DNA of 10,655 nucleotides from Aliarcobacter sp. Its GTDB lineage: Bacteria; Campylobacterota; Campylobacteria; Campylobacterales; Arcobacteraceae. Of the stretch, positions 1-9,971 are shown in pieces; the stretch's first letter is position 1; each line of letters starts with the position of its first letter. The notes beneath the pieces were generated by a model that worked only from the letters and a program-made list of their open reading frames with translations, was not told the origin of the DNA and ran no database searches. Position numbers and translations under genes: made by a program. The stretch is taken from assembly GCA_017996075.1 (NCBI GenBank), contig JAGOHQ010000020.1, positions 1 to 10,655 on the forward strand, given 5' to 3'.

Positions 1-1115
1 ATGATGTTATAGCTATTGTTTCTGCTATGAGCGGTGAAACAAACAAGTTAATAGAATATGCTGAATATTATACAAAAACTCCTGATTTAAAAGAGATGGA
101 TATGCTTTTAAGTTCAGGTGAGAGAGTAACTTCAGCCCTTTTATCTATTGCTTTAAATAGTATTGGCTACAAAGCTATATCTATGACAGGAAGAGAAGCT
201 GGAATTATGACAACAGATACTCACACAAAAGCAAAAATAGAAAAAATAGATACACAAAAGATGAAAAATGCTTTAAGTGAGGGAAATATTATTATAGTTG
301 CTGGATTTCAAGGAGTTACACTTGATGGTTCAAGAGTTACGACTTTAGGTCGAGGTGGAAGTGATTTATCTGCTGTTGCAATTGCTGGTGCTATAAAAGC
401 TGATGTTTGTGAAATTTATACTGATGTTGATGGTATTTATACAACAGATCCTAGAATTGAGCCAAAAGCTAAAAAGCTAGAGAAAATATCTTATGATGAG
501 ATGTTGGAACTTGCAAGTCTTGGTGCAAAAGTATTACAAAACAGATCAGTTGAAATGGCAAAAAAATTAAATGTAAATCTAGTATCAAGAAGTAGTTTTA
601 CACCCGATGTAGAGGGAACTTTAATAACTAATGAAGAGGAAATTATGGAAAAACCAATAGTAAGTGGAATAGCTTTAGATAAAAACCAAGTAAGAGTTGG
701 AATGTATGGTGTTGTTGATAAACCAGGTGTTGCAAGTGCAATTTTTACAGCTCTTGCTGATGCAAATATCAATGTTGATATGATTGTTCAAACAAGAGGA
801 CTTGATGGGACAACAGATTTAGATTTTACAATTCCTACAACAGATTTAGAGATTTGTAAAAAAGTTATGGAACAATTTAGACCTCAAGCAAAAAATATAG
901 ATTATAATGAGGCAATTTGTAAAGTTTCTATTGTTGGTGTTGGAATGAAATCAAATACTGGAGTTGCTTCAAAAGCATTTACAGCTATGGCAAATGAGAA
1001 TATTAATATTAGAATTATCTCTACAAGTGAGATTAAAATATCTATGATTATTGATGAAAAATATGCAGAGTTAGCCGTAAGAGCTTTACACGATGCATAC
1101 GAGTTGGACAAATAG
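1..1115 (+). CDS. lysC: Aspartate kinase (5' end outside window)
   Basis: Aspartokinase phosphorylates aspartate, the first committed step toward lysine/diaminopimelate, threonine and methionine; cytosolic. The frame is open from position 3 and reads DVIAIVSAMSGETNKL, so the ATG at 27 is internal and the true start lies upstream; roughly 30-35 residues carrying the family's KFGGTSVG motif are missing. Counting from the Met at 27, the kinase domain shows SSGERVTSALLS, GRGGSDLSAVAIA and YTDVDGIYTTDPR, the usual substrate and ATP contacts. Two C-terminal ACT regulatory domains follow, with KPGVASAIF and the end motif IISTSEIKIS, typical of lysine/threonine feedback-sensitive enzymes. It is the first visible gene of a compact run; hobA starts 23 bases before its stop. 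Family assignment is secure; the effector specificity cannot be read from the sequence. Confidence 0.96.
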   Translation, partial: DVIAIVSAMSGETNKLIEYAEYYTKTPDLKEMDMLLSSGERVTSALLSIALNSIGYKAISMTGREAGIMTTDTHTKAKIEKIDTQKMKNALSEGNIIIVAGFQGVTLDGSRVTTLGRGGSDLSAVAIAGAIKADVCEIYTDVDGIYTTDPRIEPKAKKLEKISYDEMLELASLGAKVLQNRSVEMAKKLNVNLVSRSSFTPDVEGTLITNEEEIMEKPIVSGIALDKNQVRVGMYGVVDKPGVASAIFTALADANINVDMIVQTRGLDGTTDLDFTIPTTDLEICKKVMEQFRPQAKNIDYNEAICKVSIVGVGMKSNTGVASKAFTAMANENINIRIISTSEIKISMIIDEKYAELAVRALHDAYELDK

Positions 1116-1668
1116 TTTGCAAGAGTTTTTAAATTGGACAGTTGATACAATCAGGGAAGATAAGCTTTTATCTCCTTGGTTGGAAGAAAAAAAGTTTGAA
1201 TGGGCACCATTAGTATCAAAAAATATTACAAATATTTTAGATAAAAGTTACTCTATCTTGATTATTACAGATAAAGAGAGAGAATGGTTCTTAAACTATA
1301 TTTTATCTAACATAAACTCTTCAAAACTAAATAGACCTTTTTTACCATTTTATGATTTTAGTTCATTTTATAAAAATCTTGATCAAATAAAATCAGAGGA
1401 TGATATTTCAAATATTAAAGATATGCTAAAAATATCTTTTCCAAACGGATACTGTTTTTGGTATATTGGAAAAAGTCAAGATAATAGATCTACTCTTGCA
1501 AAAATCACAAAAAGCTCTTTTTTATGGATTTTTGATGAGGAGAGACAAGGTTCTATAAACTTAAAATCAAATGATGATGGACTTGATATGAAGCTTCTTC
1601 AAATGTTTAGATTATATAACAAAACAATAAGTGCAGCACTTTTTGCAAATATTAATGTAGAGAGCTAA
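1093..1668 (+). CDS. hobA: HobA, DnaA-associated replication initiation factor
   Basis: HobA binds domain I of DnaA and promotes assembly of the initiator on oriC in Helicobacter and relatives; it is a structural counterpart of E. coli DiaA (SIS-like fold). The 191-residue product is close to the roughly 180 residues of H. pylori HobA. Visible segments are LNWTVDTIREDKLLSPWLEE near the N terminus, ILIITDKEREWFLNYIL (about 55-71), RPFLPFYDF (81-89) and CFWYIGKSQDNRS (121-133). Placement between lysC and holB matches the H. pylori order HP1229-HP1232. The ATG at 1093 lies inside lysC and has only a weak TAAGAG upstream; a TTG at 1117, just after the lysC stop, would give MQEFLNWTV and is a reasonable alternative start. 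Identification rests on recalled family features plus synteny. Confidence 0.85.
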   Translation: MHTSWTNSLQEFLNWTVDTIREDKLLSPWLEEKKFEWAPLVSKNITNILDKSYSILIITDKEREWFLNYILSNINSSKLNRPFLPFYDFSSFYKNLDQIKSEDDISNIKDMLKISFPNGYCFWYIGKSQDNRSTLAKITKSSFLWIFDEERQGSINLKSNDDGLDMKLLQMFRLYNKTISAALFANINVES

Positions 1669-3430: not shown

Positions 3431-3439
3431 GAGTTAATT
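3425..3439. repeat. Short AT-only palindrome spanning convergent stop codons
   Basis: AATTAA-GAG-TTAATT is a perfect 6-bp inverted repeat containing the folP stop (TAA, 3428-3430) and the nrdG stop (TTA on the plus strand, 3434-3436). The stem is A/T only and no U-run follows, so it is not a convincing intrinsic terminator. Transcripts of the two operons therefore probably overlap at their 3' ends. Confidence 0.3.
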
Positions 3440-4138
3440 TCTAAATTCTATTTTTAATAAATCATCTCTTATTTTATCTTTTTCTAAAATCTTTTTTTGA
3501 GTAATATTTCCAATATTTGTAGAAGTTTGTAAAAAATTCTGTATGTAATAAATACCATTATATCCTAAACGATAAAGTTTCTCTATAATTTTATTTATAT
3601 CTTCAAAGTCCAATAAATCAGCATTTACAGTAGTTCTTACTTCAAAATTAAAATTTATACTTAAAAGATGTTTTATTGTACTTATCATACTTTCATAACT
3701 ATTTTTTTGAGTTACAATTTTAAACTTTTCTTTTGGAGATTTAAAATCTAAAGATATAAAATCTATAAGGTTTTTTGATATTAAATCTTTTATAATTTTG
3801 GTATTTATTCCATTTGTATCTAGTTTTATTTTAAATCCTAGTTTTTTAACTTCTTTACAAAAAGGTTCTAAATTGTGCATAGTAGCTTCTCCACCACTTA
3901 AAACAACCGCACTTAAAAGCCCAACTCTAGATTTTAAAAAATCTAAAATATCATTATGAGAATAATATCCTTGTTTGGAAAAAACTATATTATCATTGTA
4001 ACAATAGCTACATAGCAAGTTACAAGAAATATGCCAGACTATACAAGATATTTCATCTTGGTAGTCTGTTGTTGTAAATTTTGTAAAACTATAAACAATC
4101 TTTTTGTTCAATAAATTTAACTCTTTGTTTATGTTCAC
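3434..4138 (-). CDS. nrdG: Anaerobic ribonucleotide reductase activase (radical SAM)
   Basis: NrdG uses S-adenosylmethionine and a [4Fe-4S] cluster to abstract a hydrogen from the glycyl-radical glycine of class III ribonucleotide reductase. The cluster motif CxxxCxxC is C39-NLL-C43-SY-C46, preceded by ISCIVWHIS and followed by YNDN, as in PflA-like NrdG proteins. VVLSGGEATMHN (78-89) is the SAM-binding GGE segment, and KLDTNGINT and FISLDFKSP follow later strands of the radical SAM barrel. At 234 residues it is of the longer PflA-like type rather than the ~155-residue E. coli NrdG. The start is GTG, with AGGA at 4149-4146 seven bases upstream; an in-frame TAG at 4150-4148 excludes any earlier start. 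The gene begins 50 bases inside the small glycyl-radical ORF, whose product is its presumed substrate. Confidence 0.92.
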   Translation of the reverse strand: MNINKELNLLNKKIVYSFTKFTTTDYQDEISCIVWHISCNLLCSYCYNDNIVFSKQGYYSHNDILDFLKSRVGLLSAVVLSGGEATMHNLEPFCKEVKKLGFKIKLDTNGINTKIIKDLISKNLIDFISLDFKSPKEKFKIVTQKNSYESMISTIKHLLSINFNFEVRTTVNADLLDFEDINKIIEKLYRLGYNGIYYIQNFLQTSTNIGNITQKKILEKDKIRDDLLKIEFRN

Positions 4139-4253
4139 CTTTTTTTCCTATATTAAAACTTTCAACTGGTCTATGATAACCCATAACCCTAGTATATACT
4201 ATACATTTAGTTCTTTTTTCTATATTTTTCTCAAGCAATTTTATTTTTTCCAT
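4089..4253 (-). CDS. Separate glycyl-radical domain of class III ribonucleotide reductase (54 aa)
   Basis: This 54-codon ORF starts at ATG 4253-4251 and ends at TAG 4091-4089. Its product carries TRVMGYHRPV (21-30) and SFNIGKKGEHKQR (32-44), matching the C-terminal glycyl-radical signature of NrdD proteins (RVxGYxxPV, then FNxGKxxExxxR); the radical glycine would be G25, codon GGT at 4181-4179. It overlaps the nrdD end by 23 bases in the +1 frame and the nrdG start by 50 bases. AAGGAA at 4266-4261 sits seven bases before the ATG, arguing for translation in its own right. The upstream 705-residue NrdD lacks this motif. I infer a detached subunit that docks on NrdD and is activated by NrdG, comparable in concept to YfiD/GrcA supplying a spare glycyl domain to pyruvate formate-lyase. 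A frameshift-fused product or a sequencing indel is the alternative. Confidence 0.85.
   Translation of the reverse strand: MEKIKLLEKNIEKRTKCIVYTRVMGYHRPVESFNIGKKGEHKQRVKFIEQKDCL
4146..4149 (-). promoter_or_regulatory. Ribosome binding site fixing the nrdG GTG start
   Basis: On the minus strand AGGA is followed by seven bases and then GTG at 4138-4136. It lies within the small glycyl-radical ORF, so nrdG translation is likely coupled to ribosomes finishing that ORF. Confidence 0.6.
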
Positions 4254-6348
4254 CTTCTAATTCCTTTTTTAAAATTTCATCATCACATTTTGGACAATAC
4301 TCATATTCTCCAACTAAATATCCATGAACAGGACAAACTGAAAAAAGTGGAGTAATTGTAATATATGGCAATCTAAAGTTTGAAATTACATTTTTTACCA
4401 TCTTTTTACAAGCTTCACTGCTTGATATTTTCTCTTTCATATACAAGTGTAAAACCGTTCCACCAGTATATTTGCACTGTAAATCATCTTGTAATGTAAG
4501 CGCTTCAAAAGGATCATCTGTAAAATCAACTGGTAGCTGAGATGAGTTTGTATAATAAATATTCTTCCCAAAACCTGCTTGAATAATATCTTTGTATCTT
4601 TTTATATCCTCTTTTGCAAATCTATAAGTTGTTCCTTCAGCTGGTGTTGCTTCAAGATTATATAAATTTCCAGTTCTTTCTTGATATTCAAGCATCTTAG
4701 CTCTCATAAAATCTAATAACTCCATAGTAAACTCTATACCTTTTTCATTTGATAAATCTATAGTTTCATTAGTAAAAAAGTTTTTTAACATTTCATTTAT
4801 ACCATTTACTCCAATAGTTGAAAAGTGGTTGTTAAAGTGTGGTAAATATCTTTTTGTATAAGGATAAAGACCTCTATCATACATCTCTTTTACAAAAATC
4901 CTCTTTCTTTCTAAACTATCTTTTGCTAAATCCATAAGCTCTTCAACTCTTGAATATAGTCCTTTTATATCATTTTTATATAAATATCCAAGCCTTGCCA
5001 TATTTATTGTAACAACTCCAATACTTCCAGTCATTTCAGCACTTCCAAAAAGTCCTCCACCTCGTTTTAAAAGCTCTCTTAAGTCAAGTTGAAGTCTGCA
5101 ACACATACTTCTTACATGTCCTGGTTTATATGCCTCTTCATTTGGTATTTTATTTCCAGATTTATCTTTTTTGTATTGGCTTCCTATAAAATTTTGAAAA
5201 TAGCTACTTCCTATTTTTGCTGTATTTTCAAATAAAATATCTGTATTTTCTCCATCCCAGTCAAAATCTTCAGTTATATTTACAGTTGGAATCGGAAAAG
5301 TAAATGGCTGACCTGTTTTATCCCCTTGTGTCATAATCTCGTAGTAAGCTTTGTTTATTTGATTCATCTCTTTTTGAAAATGTTTATATGTAAGCTCTTC
5401 AAAAGTTGAAACTCCCCTATTTTTTGCCTCTTTTAAAAGCTCATCATCTTTTAAATCTTTAAATAGATGCTCTTGATTTCGTGTTGGTATTTGATCTTTT
5501 AAATCACTAGGAACCGTCCAATCGATAGTTATATTTGTAAATGGACTTTGTCCCCATCGTGCAGGAACATTTAAGTTATAAACAAAGCTTCTTATAGCTT
5601 TTTTTATCTCTTTGAATTCAAGTTTATCTTTAAAAACATAAGGTGCTAAATATGTATCAAAAGAGCTAAAAGCTTGAGCTCCTGCCCACTCACTTTGAAG
5701 TATTCCTAAAAAATTTGCCATCTGTCCCAAAGCTTCTCTAAAATGATTTGGAGCCTTACTTTCAACTCTTCCTCTAACTTCATTAAATCCCTCATCAAGT
5801 AAAACTCTCAAACTCCATCCAGCACAATAAGCACTTAAACAATCTAAATCATGAATATGAATATCAGCATTTCTATGAGCATATCCTTGCTCTTTTGTAT
5901 ATATTTTATCAAGCCAATAGTTTGCTATTAGTTTTCCAGCACTATTGTTTATAAGTCCAGCATGTGAATATCCTGTATTTGAATTTGCTTTTATTCTCCA
6001 ATCTTCACCATTTATATACTCTTGTATTGTTTGAGTCGAGTTTACATAAGTTGTATCATTCGTTAATCCTAAAATCTGCTCTCTTTGGATTTTATGAAGA
6101 TGTCTATAAAGCATAAAACTTTTCATAACATCAAAATATTCACTTTTGAAAAGCTCTTTTTCTATTAAATCTTGAATATCTTCAACAGCTTTTAGATTTT
6201 TAGATTTTATCTCAAATAAAACTGAAAAATATATTGATTTATCATAAATAGTATTTACACTTTTAAATGCTTTTTTTATAGCATCTTCAATTTTAAAAGC
6301 TTCAAATTTCTCTTTTTTACCATCTCTTTTTAAAATCTCTATTTGCAT
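4231..6348 (-). CDS. nrdD: Class III ribonucleoside-triphosphate reductase, catalytic subunit lacking the glycyl-radical motif
   Basis: NrdD reduces ribonucleotides to deoxyribonucleotides without oxygen. The 705-residue product has an N-terminal ATP-cone (about 1-90, MQIEILKRDGKKEKFEAFKI) for allosteric control and a ten-stranded barrel domain with HIHDLDCLSAYCAGWSL (164-180), VPARWGQSPFTN (261-272), SMCCRLQLDL (414-423), GSIGVVTINMARLGY (441-455) and NLEATPAEGT (564-573). The end bears a Cys/His zinc knuckle, C672-PV-H675 and C685-PK-C688. The protein stops 17 residues after C688, before the RVxGY glycyl-radical loop that normally completes the chain; that loop is in the next ORF. AAGGAA at 6358-6353 precedes the ATG by 6 bases. 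Order nrdD, glycyl ORF, nrdG suggests one anaerobic operon. Family is certain; activity alone is doubtful. Confidence 0.95.
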   Translation of the reverse strand: MQIEILKRDGKKEKFEAFKIEDAIKKAFKSVNTIYDKSIYFSVLFEIKSKNLKAVEDIQDLIEKELFKSEYFDVMKSFMLYRHLHKIQREQILGLTNDTTYVNSTQTIQEYINGEDWRIKANSNTGYSHAGLINNSAGKLIANYWLDKIYTKEQGYAHRNADIHIHDLDCLSAYCAGWSLRVLLDEGFNEVRGRVESKAPNHFREALGQMANFLGILQSEWAGAQAFSSFDTYLAPYVFKDKLEFKEIKKAIRSFVYNLNVPARWGQSPFTNITIDWTVPSDLKDQIPTRNQEHLFKDLKDDELLKEAKNRGVSTFEELTYKHFQKEMNQINKAYYEIMTQGDKTGQPFTFPIPTVNITEDFDWDGENTDILFENTAKIGSSYFQNFIGSQYKKDKSGNKIPNEEAYKPGHVRSMCCRLQLDLRELLKRGGGLFGSAEMTGSIGVVTINMARLGYLYKNDIKGLYSRVEELMDLAKDSLERKRIFVKEMYDRGLYPYTKRYLPHFNNHFSTIGVNGINEMLKNFFTNETIDLSNEKGIEFTMELLDFMRAKMLEYQERTGNLYNLEATPAEGTTYRFAKEDIKRYKDIIQAGFGKNIYYTNSSQLPVDFTDDPFEALTLQDDLQCKYTGGTVLHLYMKEKISSSEACKKMVKNVISNFRLPYITITPLFSVCPVHGYLVGEYEYCPKCDDEILKKELEDGKNKIA
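4261..4266 (-). promoter_or_regulatory. Ribosome binding site of the glycyl-radical ORF
   Basis: AAGGAA on the minus strand lies inside the end of nrdD, seven bases before the ATG at 4253. Its quality and spacing equal those of nrdD and argF, which supports independent initiation of the 54-codon ORF. Confidence 0.65.
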
Positions 6349-8942: not shown

Positions 8943-9971
8943 ATGGGGAAAGCATCTTTTAGTGTAGGAAAATTAACACAACACTCACAATCGCACATAA
9001 ATAGAGAAAATGGTTTAAACTATGCTGTAGTTGAAAATTCAAGAGCTAATAGTTTTAATAAATATTATGAATACGATGATTTTTTACAAAAAGCAAAAGA
9101 TAGGTACAAAGAACAAGTAAAACAAAATATGCAAAATAGTGCTATTGTCAATATATTTCAAGAAGCTATTATTGCAATAGATGGACATCATACATCAGAA
9201 GATATTTTAGATCTATTTTTTGAATTAAAACAAAAATATGGTGGACATGAGTTAATATCTCTTACAATTCATAAAGATGAAGGTTATTTCACAAAAAATA
9301 ATCAAAATTTTTATCCACACAAAAACATATTAAAAAAAGAAGATAACAACTGGTATATAACTCAAGATGGTTTAAATGGTAAAAAACCAGAAGATTTCTC
9401 ACAAAAAGTAGATATTTCGGAATTTTCTACTGTTTTAACTCCTCATGCACATGCTATTTTTTCAATGTTTGACTTCTCTTTAGGAAGAAATGCAAGAATG
9501 CAGAAAAAAGATATGATGGAGAGATTAAAGTTTGTAGCAACTTTGTTAAAAATGGATTACTCTTTACAAAAAATTAATAAAATCTCAAATTATGATACAA
9601 ATCTTAATTTAGAAGATGGTGAAGAGATTAATACAAATAGCCAAATGACAATTAAAAACTCAAATTTGATAGAGATAAACACTCAATTAAGAGCAAAAGA
9701 GCTAGAACTAGAAGAAGTGATTTCAAAACTAAGAATAAAGCAAAATATGTTAAGTGATATTTTAATCAAAATCTCTCAAAAAGAGAATATTTTAGATGAA
9801 TTAAACACTCAAGTATTTATTAAAGAAGAAGATTTAGATAATCTTTCAAATATTATATCTATAAAAAATACGACTATAAATAATCTAAATTTAACAATAA
9901 AACAAAAAGAGTTTAAAATAGACGAACTAGATAGTAAAATTTATGGAAGAAGTCAAACTATGGCTATCTAA
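8943..9971 (+). CDS. Mob/Pre-like (MOBV) relaxase with coiled-coil repeat tail
   Basis: The N-terminal ~210 residues look like a plasmid mobilisation/recombination protein: MGKASFSVGKLTQHSQSH followed by NRENGLNY and NSRANSFNKYY resembles the family's first conserved region, and H110-KDE with P167-H168-A-H170 resembles the split form of the metal-binding HxDE...PHxH motif, here with over 50 residues between the halves. Such enzymes nick one DNA strand at oriT. Residues 249-332 are six tandem 14-residue units predicted to form a coiled coil, and the protein ends ten residues later at 342, shorter than many MOBV relaxases (often 400 or more). AGGGGA at 8933-8938 precedes the ATG. Neighbours are ordinary chromosomal genes, with no replication or transfer gene in view, so it may be a remnant of an integrated plasmid or a domesticated gene. 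Nicking activity is not established. Confidence 0.7.
   Translation: MGKASFSVGKLTQHSQSHINRENGLNYAVVENSRANSFNKYYEYDDFLQKAKDRYKEQVKQNMQNSAIVNIFQEAIIAIDGHHTSEDILDLFFELKQKYGGHELISLTIHKDEGYFTKNNQNFYPHKNILKKEDNNWYITQDGLNGKKPEDFSQKVDISEFSTVLTPHAHAIFSMFDFSLGRNARMQKKDMMERLKFVATLLKMDYSLQKINKISNYDTNLNLEDGEEINTNSQMTIKNSNLIEINTQLRAKELELEEVISKLRIKQNMLSDILIKISQKENILDELNTQVFIKEEDLDNLSNIISIKNTTINNLNLTIKQKEFKIDELDSKIYGRSQTMAI
9687..9938 (+). repeat. Six tandem 14-codon units encoding a coiled coil
   Basis: Residues 249-332 of the relaxase-like protein divide into six 14-residue units beginning LRAKELEL, LRIKQNML, ISQKENIL, VFIKEEDL, ISIKNTTI and IKQKEFKI. Lysine is at position 4 in all six, a hydrophobic residue at positions 1 and 8, and E/D/S/N at 9-10. 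Each unit equals two heptads. The DNA copies have diverged, so the repeat is seen only in protein. Confidence 0.75.

What the first reader, a model, noticed from the sequence alone, without database searches (positions are those of the whole stretch)
4089..6348. Split class III ribonucleotide reductase: glycyl-radical domain encoded by its own small gene
NrdD (705 aa) has the ATP-cone, catalytic barrel and zinc knuckle but ends before the RVxGY loop that carries the obligatory glycyl radical. The loop, with G25 in TRVMGYHRPV and the following FNIGKKGE segment, is encoded by a 54-codon ORF in the +1 frame with its own AAGGAA site and ATG. If real, radical generation occurs on a small detachable subunit activated by NrdG, then docks into NrdD. 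A separate glycyl domain is established for YfiD/GrcA with pyruvate formate-lyase; its use as the normal arrangement of a reductase would be unusual. C688 to the glycine would be 35 residues in a fused protein, longer than the roughly 14-18 I recall in single-chain NrdDs, which favours two chains.
Basis: partly seen in the sequence, partly recalled or inferred. Interest (0 to 1): 0.8.

Follow-up and report, generated by a model that had tools for sequence, protein, structure and literature searches.

The report
Anaerobic reductase with separate radical subunit
Many bacteria, and some of their viruses, encode the oxygen-sensitive radical part of their anaerobic DNA-building-block enzyme in its own tiny gene, so a part that air destroys may be replaceable without remaking the whole enzyme.

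Summary
The window (nearest named relative: Arcobacter cryaerophilus gv. crypticus) encodes NrdD (705 aa) that stops after the zinc knuckle, then a 54-aa gene with the glycyl-radical loop, then nrdG. It is neither an error nor a frameshift. In an even sample of 298 genomes of the phylum (Campylobacterota), 150 have NrdD: 127 carry the loop on a separate short ORF, 3 have this NrdD type fused, 20 have other NrdD types. In 77 named loci the small gene occurs in all three frames, from overlapping to 852 nt away. In six genomes it lies over 58 kb from nrdD but directly beside nrdG. Some extra copies sit in prophages, and many virus contigs carry it with no nrdD in the stretch seen. The same split occurs on proteobacterial plasmids, including Cupriavidus necator pHG1. 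The small gene is under purifying selection. A read-through model fits the canonical NrdD fold. Most likely this is a two-chain class III reductase whose small subunit is activated by NrdG and needed by NrdD. That the subunit is exchanged after oxygen damage, or supplied by phages, is inferred. I found no description in the searches made.

The parts
4231..6348 (-). nrdD: catalytic subunit of class III (anaerobic) ribonucleotide reductase, 705 aa, ends 17 residues after the last zinc cysteine
   Evidence: Pfam NRDD 2-531/562 and ATP-cone; NCBIfam PRK08270 1074.7 bits
6091..6339 (-). ATP-cone domain, residues 4-86
   Evidence: PF03477 E 4.6e-16
5824..5826 (-). C175, active-site cysteine of the GYCAGW motif (role assigned from family knowledge)
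   Evidence: invariant in 13 aligned NrdD
5098..5103 (-). C416-C417, finger-loop cysteines of the SMCCR motif (role assigned from family knowledge)
   Evidence: invariant in 13 aligned NrdD
4285..4335 (-). zinc knuckle CPVHG...CPKC, residues C672, H675, C685, C688
   Evidence: invariant in 13 aligned NrdD
4089..4253 (-). small radical-subunit gene, 54 aa, carrying the glycyl-radical loop TRVMGYHRP and FNIGKKGE
   Evidence: Pfam NRDD 531-562/562; conserved as a separate ORF; purifying selection
4179..4181 (-). Gly25 codon, predicted radical site (GGT)
   Evidence: invariant in 18 chosen small proteins; profile of alignment A3 aligns this loop with the single-chain glycyl loops of 8p23 and 4coi
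4261..4266 (-). AAGGAA, ribosome-binding-like site of the small gene, inside the end of nrdD
3434..4138 (-). nrdG: radical-SAM activase (NrdG2 type); exact start uncertain, listed frame overlaps the end of the small gene
   Evidence: TIGR02495 171.6 bits against a cut-off of 131.15

Best explanation
This is a two-chain class III ribonucleotide reductase. NrdD supplies the ATP-cone, catalytic barrel, finger-loop cysteines and zinc knuckle. A 54-aa subunit supplies the radical glycine. NrdG, encoded next door, makes the glycyl radical on the small subunit, whose loop sits in the barrel next to the finger-loop cysteine as in single-chain NrdD. Shown here: separate genes, conservation, constraint, linkage to nrdG, intact catalytic residues, and a model compatible with the canonical fold. 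Inferred: the radical chemistry, tight or reversible docking, and replacement of the small subunit after oxygen cleaves it at the glycine.
Against: No expression, binding or EPR data. The model was made as one chain by reading a stop as serine, and fused homologues were in its alignment, so it does not test docking. 3 of 130 genomes of this NrdD type are fused, and 38 of 71 viral NrdD loci are fused, so two chains are not obligatory for the chemistry.
Confidence: 0.88

Rival explanations
1. Sequencing or assembly error, or programmed frameshifting, so that one fused protein is really made.
For: In the window the two ORFs overlap by 23 nt in different frames, which alone could suggest a frameshift. 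In 15 of 77 named loci the two are in the same frame with stop codons between, where read-through cannot be excluded case by case.
Against: Separate in 77 of 80 named loci (none seen fused), in all three frames, 49 nt overlapping to 852 nt apart; other genes lie between in two loci examined; 58 kb or more apart in six genomes.
Confidence: 0.01
2. The small protein is only a spare part, like YfiD/GrcA for pyruvate formate-lyase, and NrdD has another radical source.
For: Extra copies in prophages and stand-alone copies in virus contigs look like spare parts.
Against: NrdD itself has no glycyl loop. The draft genome has no other NRDD match, and no PF01228 protein was found in 31 genus genomes.
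Confidence: 0.06
3. The split NrdD is decaying and inactive; cells rely on class I reductase.
For: Class I NrdB family matches in 30 of 31 genus genomes, 29 over the cut-off.
Against: Catalytic residues kept, strong constraint on the small gene, retention across the phylum, and fused forms nested among split ones that keep the motif.
Confidence: 0.03

Closest known systems
Single-chain class III ribonucleotide reductase (T. maritima, P. copri, phage T4, E. coli NrdD)
   Same: ATP-cone (in some), barrel, finger loop, zinc site, glycyl loop and NrdG partner; profile and model match T. maritima, P. copri and T4 structures
   Different: The polypeptide is cut between zinc site and glycyl loop; the loop has its own gene, sometimes far from nrdD and beside nrdG
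YfiD/GrcA and T4 Y06I (spare-part proteins for pyruvate formate-lyase)
   Same: Small stand-alone glycyl-radical protein used with a large partner; one is phage-encoded (PMC8683613, passages)
   Different: Those repair an enzyme that has its own glycine (PFL type, PF01228); here the large enzyme has none and the small protein matched only NRDD in Pfam
Split class II reductase NrdJa/NrdJb
   Same: A reductase divided over two genes of one operon
   Different: NrdJb mediates disulfide exchange, not radical storage. [quoted passage not shown]
Phage nrdD genes broken by introns or inteins
   Same: nrdD coding sequence in pieces (PMC3653736, passages)
   Different: Those breaks are mostly ascribed to mobile elements; here the break lies at one domain border and is kept across a phylum

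Membership tests
Class III ribonucleotide reductase | NRDD catalytic domain with finger-loop cysteines | tested here: met
   Pfam and NCBIfam; C175, C416, C417 invariant in 13
Class III ribonucleotide reductase | glycyl-radical loop of the NRDD C-terminal profile present in the system | tested here: met
   small protein matches model 531-562 over the cut-off
Class III ribonucleotide reductase | dedicated radical-SAM activase NrdG | tested here: met
   TIGR02495 over cut-off
Class III ribonucleotide reductase | actual glycyl radical and nucleotide reduction | not testable with these tools
   needs EPR and an activity assay
Single-chain NrdD (usual arrangement, not definitional) | catalytic barrel and radical glycine on one polypeptide | tested here: not met
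   separate ORFs in the window and in 127 of 130 genomes of this NrdD type
YfiD/GrcA | PFL-type glycyl-radical domain PF01228 | tested here: not met
   only NRDD found for the small protein up to E 1; PF01228 in 0 of 31 genus genomes
YfiD/GrcA | accessory to an enzyme that has its own radical glycine | tested here: not met
   no NrdD with its own glycyl loop found in the window's draft genome, which is 54% complete
Split class II reductase NrdJab | zinc-finger, thiol-disulfide small chain NrdJb | tested here: not met
   the small protein is a 54-aa glycyl loop with one nearly invariant cysteine

The most novel reading that the evidence does not exclude
The glycyl radical is held on an exchangeable cartridge: oxygen cuts only the roughly 55-aa subunit, which is thrown away and replaced while the roughly 700-aa NrdD survives. 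Phages and prophages carry the cartridge gene alone to recharge the host reductase during infection.
Probability: 0.45. Interest if true: 0.92.

Novelty: new variant of a known kind. Interest (0 to 1): 0.82.

Why it matters
The usual picture, in which the class III radical glycine is part of the NrdD chain, fails for most NrdD-bearing genomes sampled in a whole phylum (127 of 150) and for plasmid-borne enzymes of Proteobacteria. Andorfer et al. 2021 wrote that only YfiD and Y06I were validated and that spare parts for other glycyl-radical enzymes are possible (PMC8683613, passage); here is a natural two-part system to test it on, in bacteria of which many live at the oxic-anoxic border. It also points to a very small phage-borne metabolic gene. 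From recall, G650 was reported as the radical site of C. necator NrdD; residue 650 of that 676-aa protein is the G of the zinc-knuckle CPTHGY, and the RVMGY loop is on the next gene. NrdD annotated at about 675-705 aa elsewhere should be rechecked for a missed small gene.

Tried and rejected
Assembly error, programmed frameshift and intron or intein in the window: rejected because frame, distance and linkage vary. A second full-length NrdD in the genome: none found (genome 54% complete). A PFL-type enzyme for which the small protein would be a spare: none in 31 genus genomes. Relatives in cultured phage records: no match by tblastn at E 1e-3, a result against a wide spread in cultured phages. 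The search for homologous proteins gave nothing, so no protein-database-wide survey exists here. Rfam found nothing in two loci of interrupted or partial phage small genes. The second weak hits in G003 and G008 (E about 4e-4) were dropped from the copy counts. My length rule labelled six plasmid loci 'FUSED' (L247, L248, L251, L254, L257, L258); one search shows the barrel and the loop in different frames there, so they are counted as separate. The 79 tree rows were my choice out of 190 loci screened; three loci gave no frame (among them L210 and L211, the other NrdD types). The direction on the tree (fission first, re-fusion later) is parsimony on a biased sample. Literature statements rest on 10 searches of an open-access library and on passages, not whole texts, of 15 papers; subscription papers, Siedow 1999 among them (not held), were not read.

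Full report
WHAT IS THERE. On the minus strand lie nrdD (4231-6348, 705 aa), a 54-aa ORF (4089-4253) and nrdG (3434-4138). NrdD has an ATP-cone and covers positions 2-531 of the 562-position Pfam NRDD model; the small protein covers 531-562. NCBIfam names the large protein PRK08270-type ribonucleoside triphosphate reductase and the third gene NrdG2. The small ATG lies inside the end of nrdD, 7 nt after AAGGAA. The genome is a 54%-complete draft with only these two NRDD matches. The nearest named relative is Arcobacter cryaerophilus gv. crypticus, 96% identical in NrdD (very near records may be left out there).

NOT AN ERROR OR FRAMESHIFT. A scan of species genomes with NrdD kept the best 80 of 302 loci. 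Of the 80 titles, 79 name Campylobacterota groups (among them Arcobacter, Malaciobacter, Sulfurospirillum, Sulfurimonas, Sulfurovum, Sulfuricurvum, Helicobacteraceae); L079 says only 'bacterium'. In 77 of 80 the glycyl motif is in a separate ORF and in none was it seen fused; L035 and L049 are cut by contig ends, and in L071 the ORF is not in the 464 nt available. Relative to nrdD the small gene is in frame 0, 1 and 2 in 15, 28 and 34 loci; it overlaps nrdD in 41, lies 0-100 nt away in 26, 101-500 nt in 5 and 781-852 nt in 5. With nrdG taken by motif, the order nrdD-small-nrdG is seen in 73; in 4 no nrdG was found in the locus. In the two long gaps I looked at, a NifU_N-domain gene sits between, in one of them also a PAC_bac gene.

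PHYLUM SURVEY. In 298 genomes drawn evenly from the phylum, 150 have NRDD and 130 match the small protein; all 130 are among the 150, so none of the 148 genomes without NRDD matched. In 127 of the 130 the matching frame is short (at most 104 aa). In 3 (G165, G237, G336) it is part of a one-piece NrdD. The other 20 of 150 carry other NrdD types: 17 match the model end to end with E near 1e-195 to 1e-201, and G069 end to end, each in one frame; G318 scores far lower (E 1.5e-78, one frame); G222 has E 2.0e-71 but its row fell outside the printed list, so its frame was not seen.

UNLINKED GENES FOLLOW NRDG. In six genomes of one genus (G179, G266, G289, G296, G307, G351) the small gene is 58 kb or more from nrdD, taking contigs as circular where that is shorter. 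In 6 of 6 it is immediately upstream of a gene that passes the NrdG2 cut-off, while the 7-8 kb around nrdD show neither. G230 has the order nrdD-nrdG-small. This ties the small protein to the activase and excludes any cis mechanism of fusion in those six.

EXTRA COPIES IN PROPHAGES. Eleven of the 130 genomes have more than one clear copy. One (G317) is a duplicated operon with a broken second nrdD. I scanned some neighbours of extra copies in seven genomes: in five (G179, G214, G271, G307, G350) they match phage lysis, packaging or transposition families (holin, Rz-like spanin, endolysin, terminase large subunit, DNA transposition protein); in G304 only a nucleotide-metabolism family and one of unknown function; in G327 nothing (one protein scanned). 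G299, G306 and G224 were not scanned.

VIRUS CONTIGS. Two scans with the small protein or its alignment (32 loci, the best 80 of 203) gave 84 different loci. In 74 the motif is in a separate ORF, in none was it fused, and in 10 my motif was not found; 2 of the 74 also hold a large NrdD in the stretch fetched. These are not a fair sample: they were found through the small protein, several are near-identical, and at least one is a contig of a genome used above (same length, same protein: L339 and G307:C21). Of 32 virus records searched whole, 31 match NRDD, one has a clear large NrdD, and one a further weak partial match. Neighbours on 4 of 8 contigs tested match phage families of assigned function (DNA polymerase, polynucleotide kinase, tail fibre, head proteins), on one only a family of unknown function, on three nothing. 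Many virus records are fragments, so absence of nrdD is not proof. Scans with NrdD gave 71 loci: 38 have a fused NrdD and 16 a separate small ORF nearby; the rest were cut or unclear. Of 11 unclear records searched whole, 7 have a small glycyl ORF or part of one elsewhere in the record or missed by my motif.

BEYOND THE PHYLUM. tblastn against plasmids found 28 records; I looked at 16. In 12 the loop is in a frame of its own next to a large NrdD (C. necator H16, C. metallidurans CH34, Bradyrhizobium, Shinella, two Paracoccus, Cereibacter, Aquabacterium, Azospira, Sulfuricystis, Sulfuricurvum, and Thiothrix, whose large NrdD is itself in two frames); in Allochromatium there is a small ORF with no NrdD in the 7.1 kb seen; 3 are fused (Acidiphilium, Actinomyces, Acidithiobacillus). 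Where annotated, most small ORFs bear the name 'nrdD, anaerobic ribonucleoside-triphosphate reductase' (in one record 'hypothetical protein'), so databases hold it without comment. The C. metallidurans genome paper lists NrdDG as Rmet_5137 and Rmet_5139, leaving one number between (PMC2864759, passage).

EVOLUTION. A tree of 79 chosen NrdD cores without the glycyl part needs at least 5 changes between split and fused. Sixteen fused viral NrdDs form one side of a branch (SH-aLRT 86); of the other 61 non-outgroup rows 55 are split and 6 fused, the fused ones nested among split ones. The simplest reading is one old fission with a few later re-fusions, but sampling is biased, many forks are weak and the outgroup is remote. 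The small gene is constrained: mean pN 0.048, pS 0.638 over 36 pairs of nine genes. Frame controls: for the very close L033 uninformative; for L034 the coding frame (pN 0.064, pS 0.337) is the constrained one.

COMPARISON WITH WHAT IS KNOWN. The nearest working parallel is YfiD/Y06I with pyruvate formate-lyase (PMC8683613, passages), which differs in family (PF01228, 0 of 31 genus genomes) and in being a repair part rather than the only radical carrier. [quoted passage not shown] The passages I saw in 13 other papers do not describe a separate glycyl subunit of NrdD; in several only part of the matching places was printed. From recall only: Siedow et al. 1999 reported that G650A in C. necator NrdD abolishes function and took G650 as the radical site. 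In the pHG1 sequence residue 650 is the glycine of the zinc knuckle CPTHGY, and the RVMGY loop is on the next, 66-aa gene.

LIMITS. No biochemical evidence; genomes outside the phylum could not be sampled evenly; the tool for a protein-wide survey was off.

Noticed in passing
L398 (G413:C1:184800-187000), coordinates 403-1432: In a 196-kb virus contig the small radical gene is interrupted directly after the codon of the radical glycine; a 268-aa frame with a LAGLIDADG-type endonuclease domain (PF14528, E 8e-8) follows, and the rest of the gene reads at the end of that frame.
   Followed up: partly
L253 (Allochromatium vinosum pALVIN01): A stand-alone small radical gene beside a CHAP-domain gene (possibly lysis-related), with no NrdD in the 7.1 kb fetched.
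   Followed up: partly
L111:5085-5892 and L039:3111-3608: NifU_N-like genes (in L111 also a PAC_bac gene) between nrdD and the small gene; a link to the iron-sulfur cluster of NrdG is a guess.
   Followed up: partly
L241, L242, L243 and L237; L272, L275-L282: Some viral small proteins carry a longer N-terminal part that ends in a DG.VR- or DG...Q-like turn before the glycyl loop.
   Followed up: no
L285, L291, L298: Fused viral NrdDs with a C-terminal glutaredoxin- or thioredoxin-like domain, perhaps a built-in reductant; weak Pfam matches in 3 of 3 tested.
   Followed up: partly
window 8943-9971 (+): A 342-aa ORF with no Pfam match; its start reads like a Mob/Pre-type plasmid relaxase (from recall, untested).
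   Followed up: partly
window 1093-1665 (+): hobA-type replication regulator (PF12163) next to a DNA polymerase III delta-prime-like gene.
   Followed up: no
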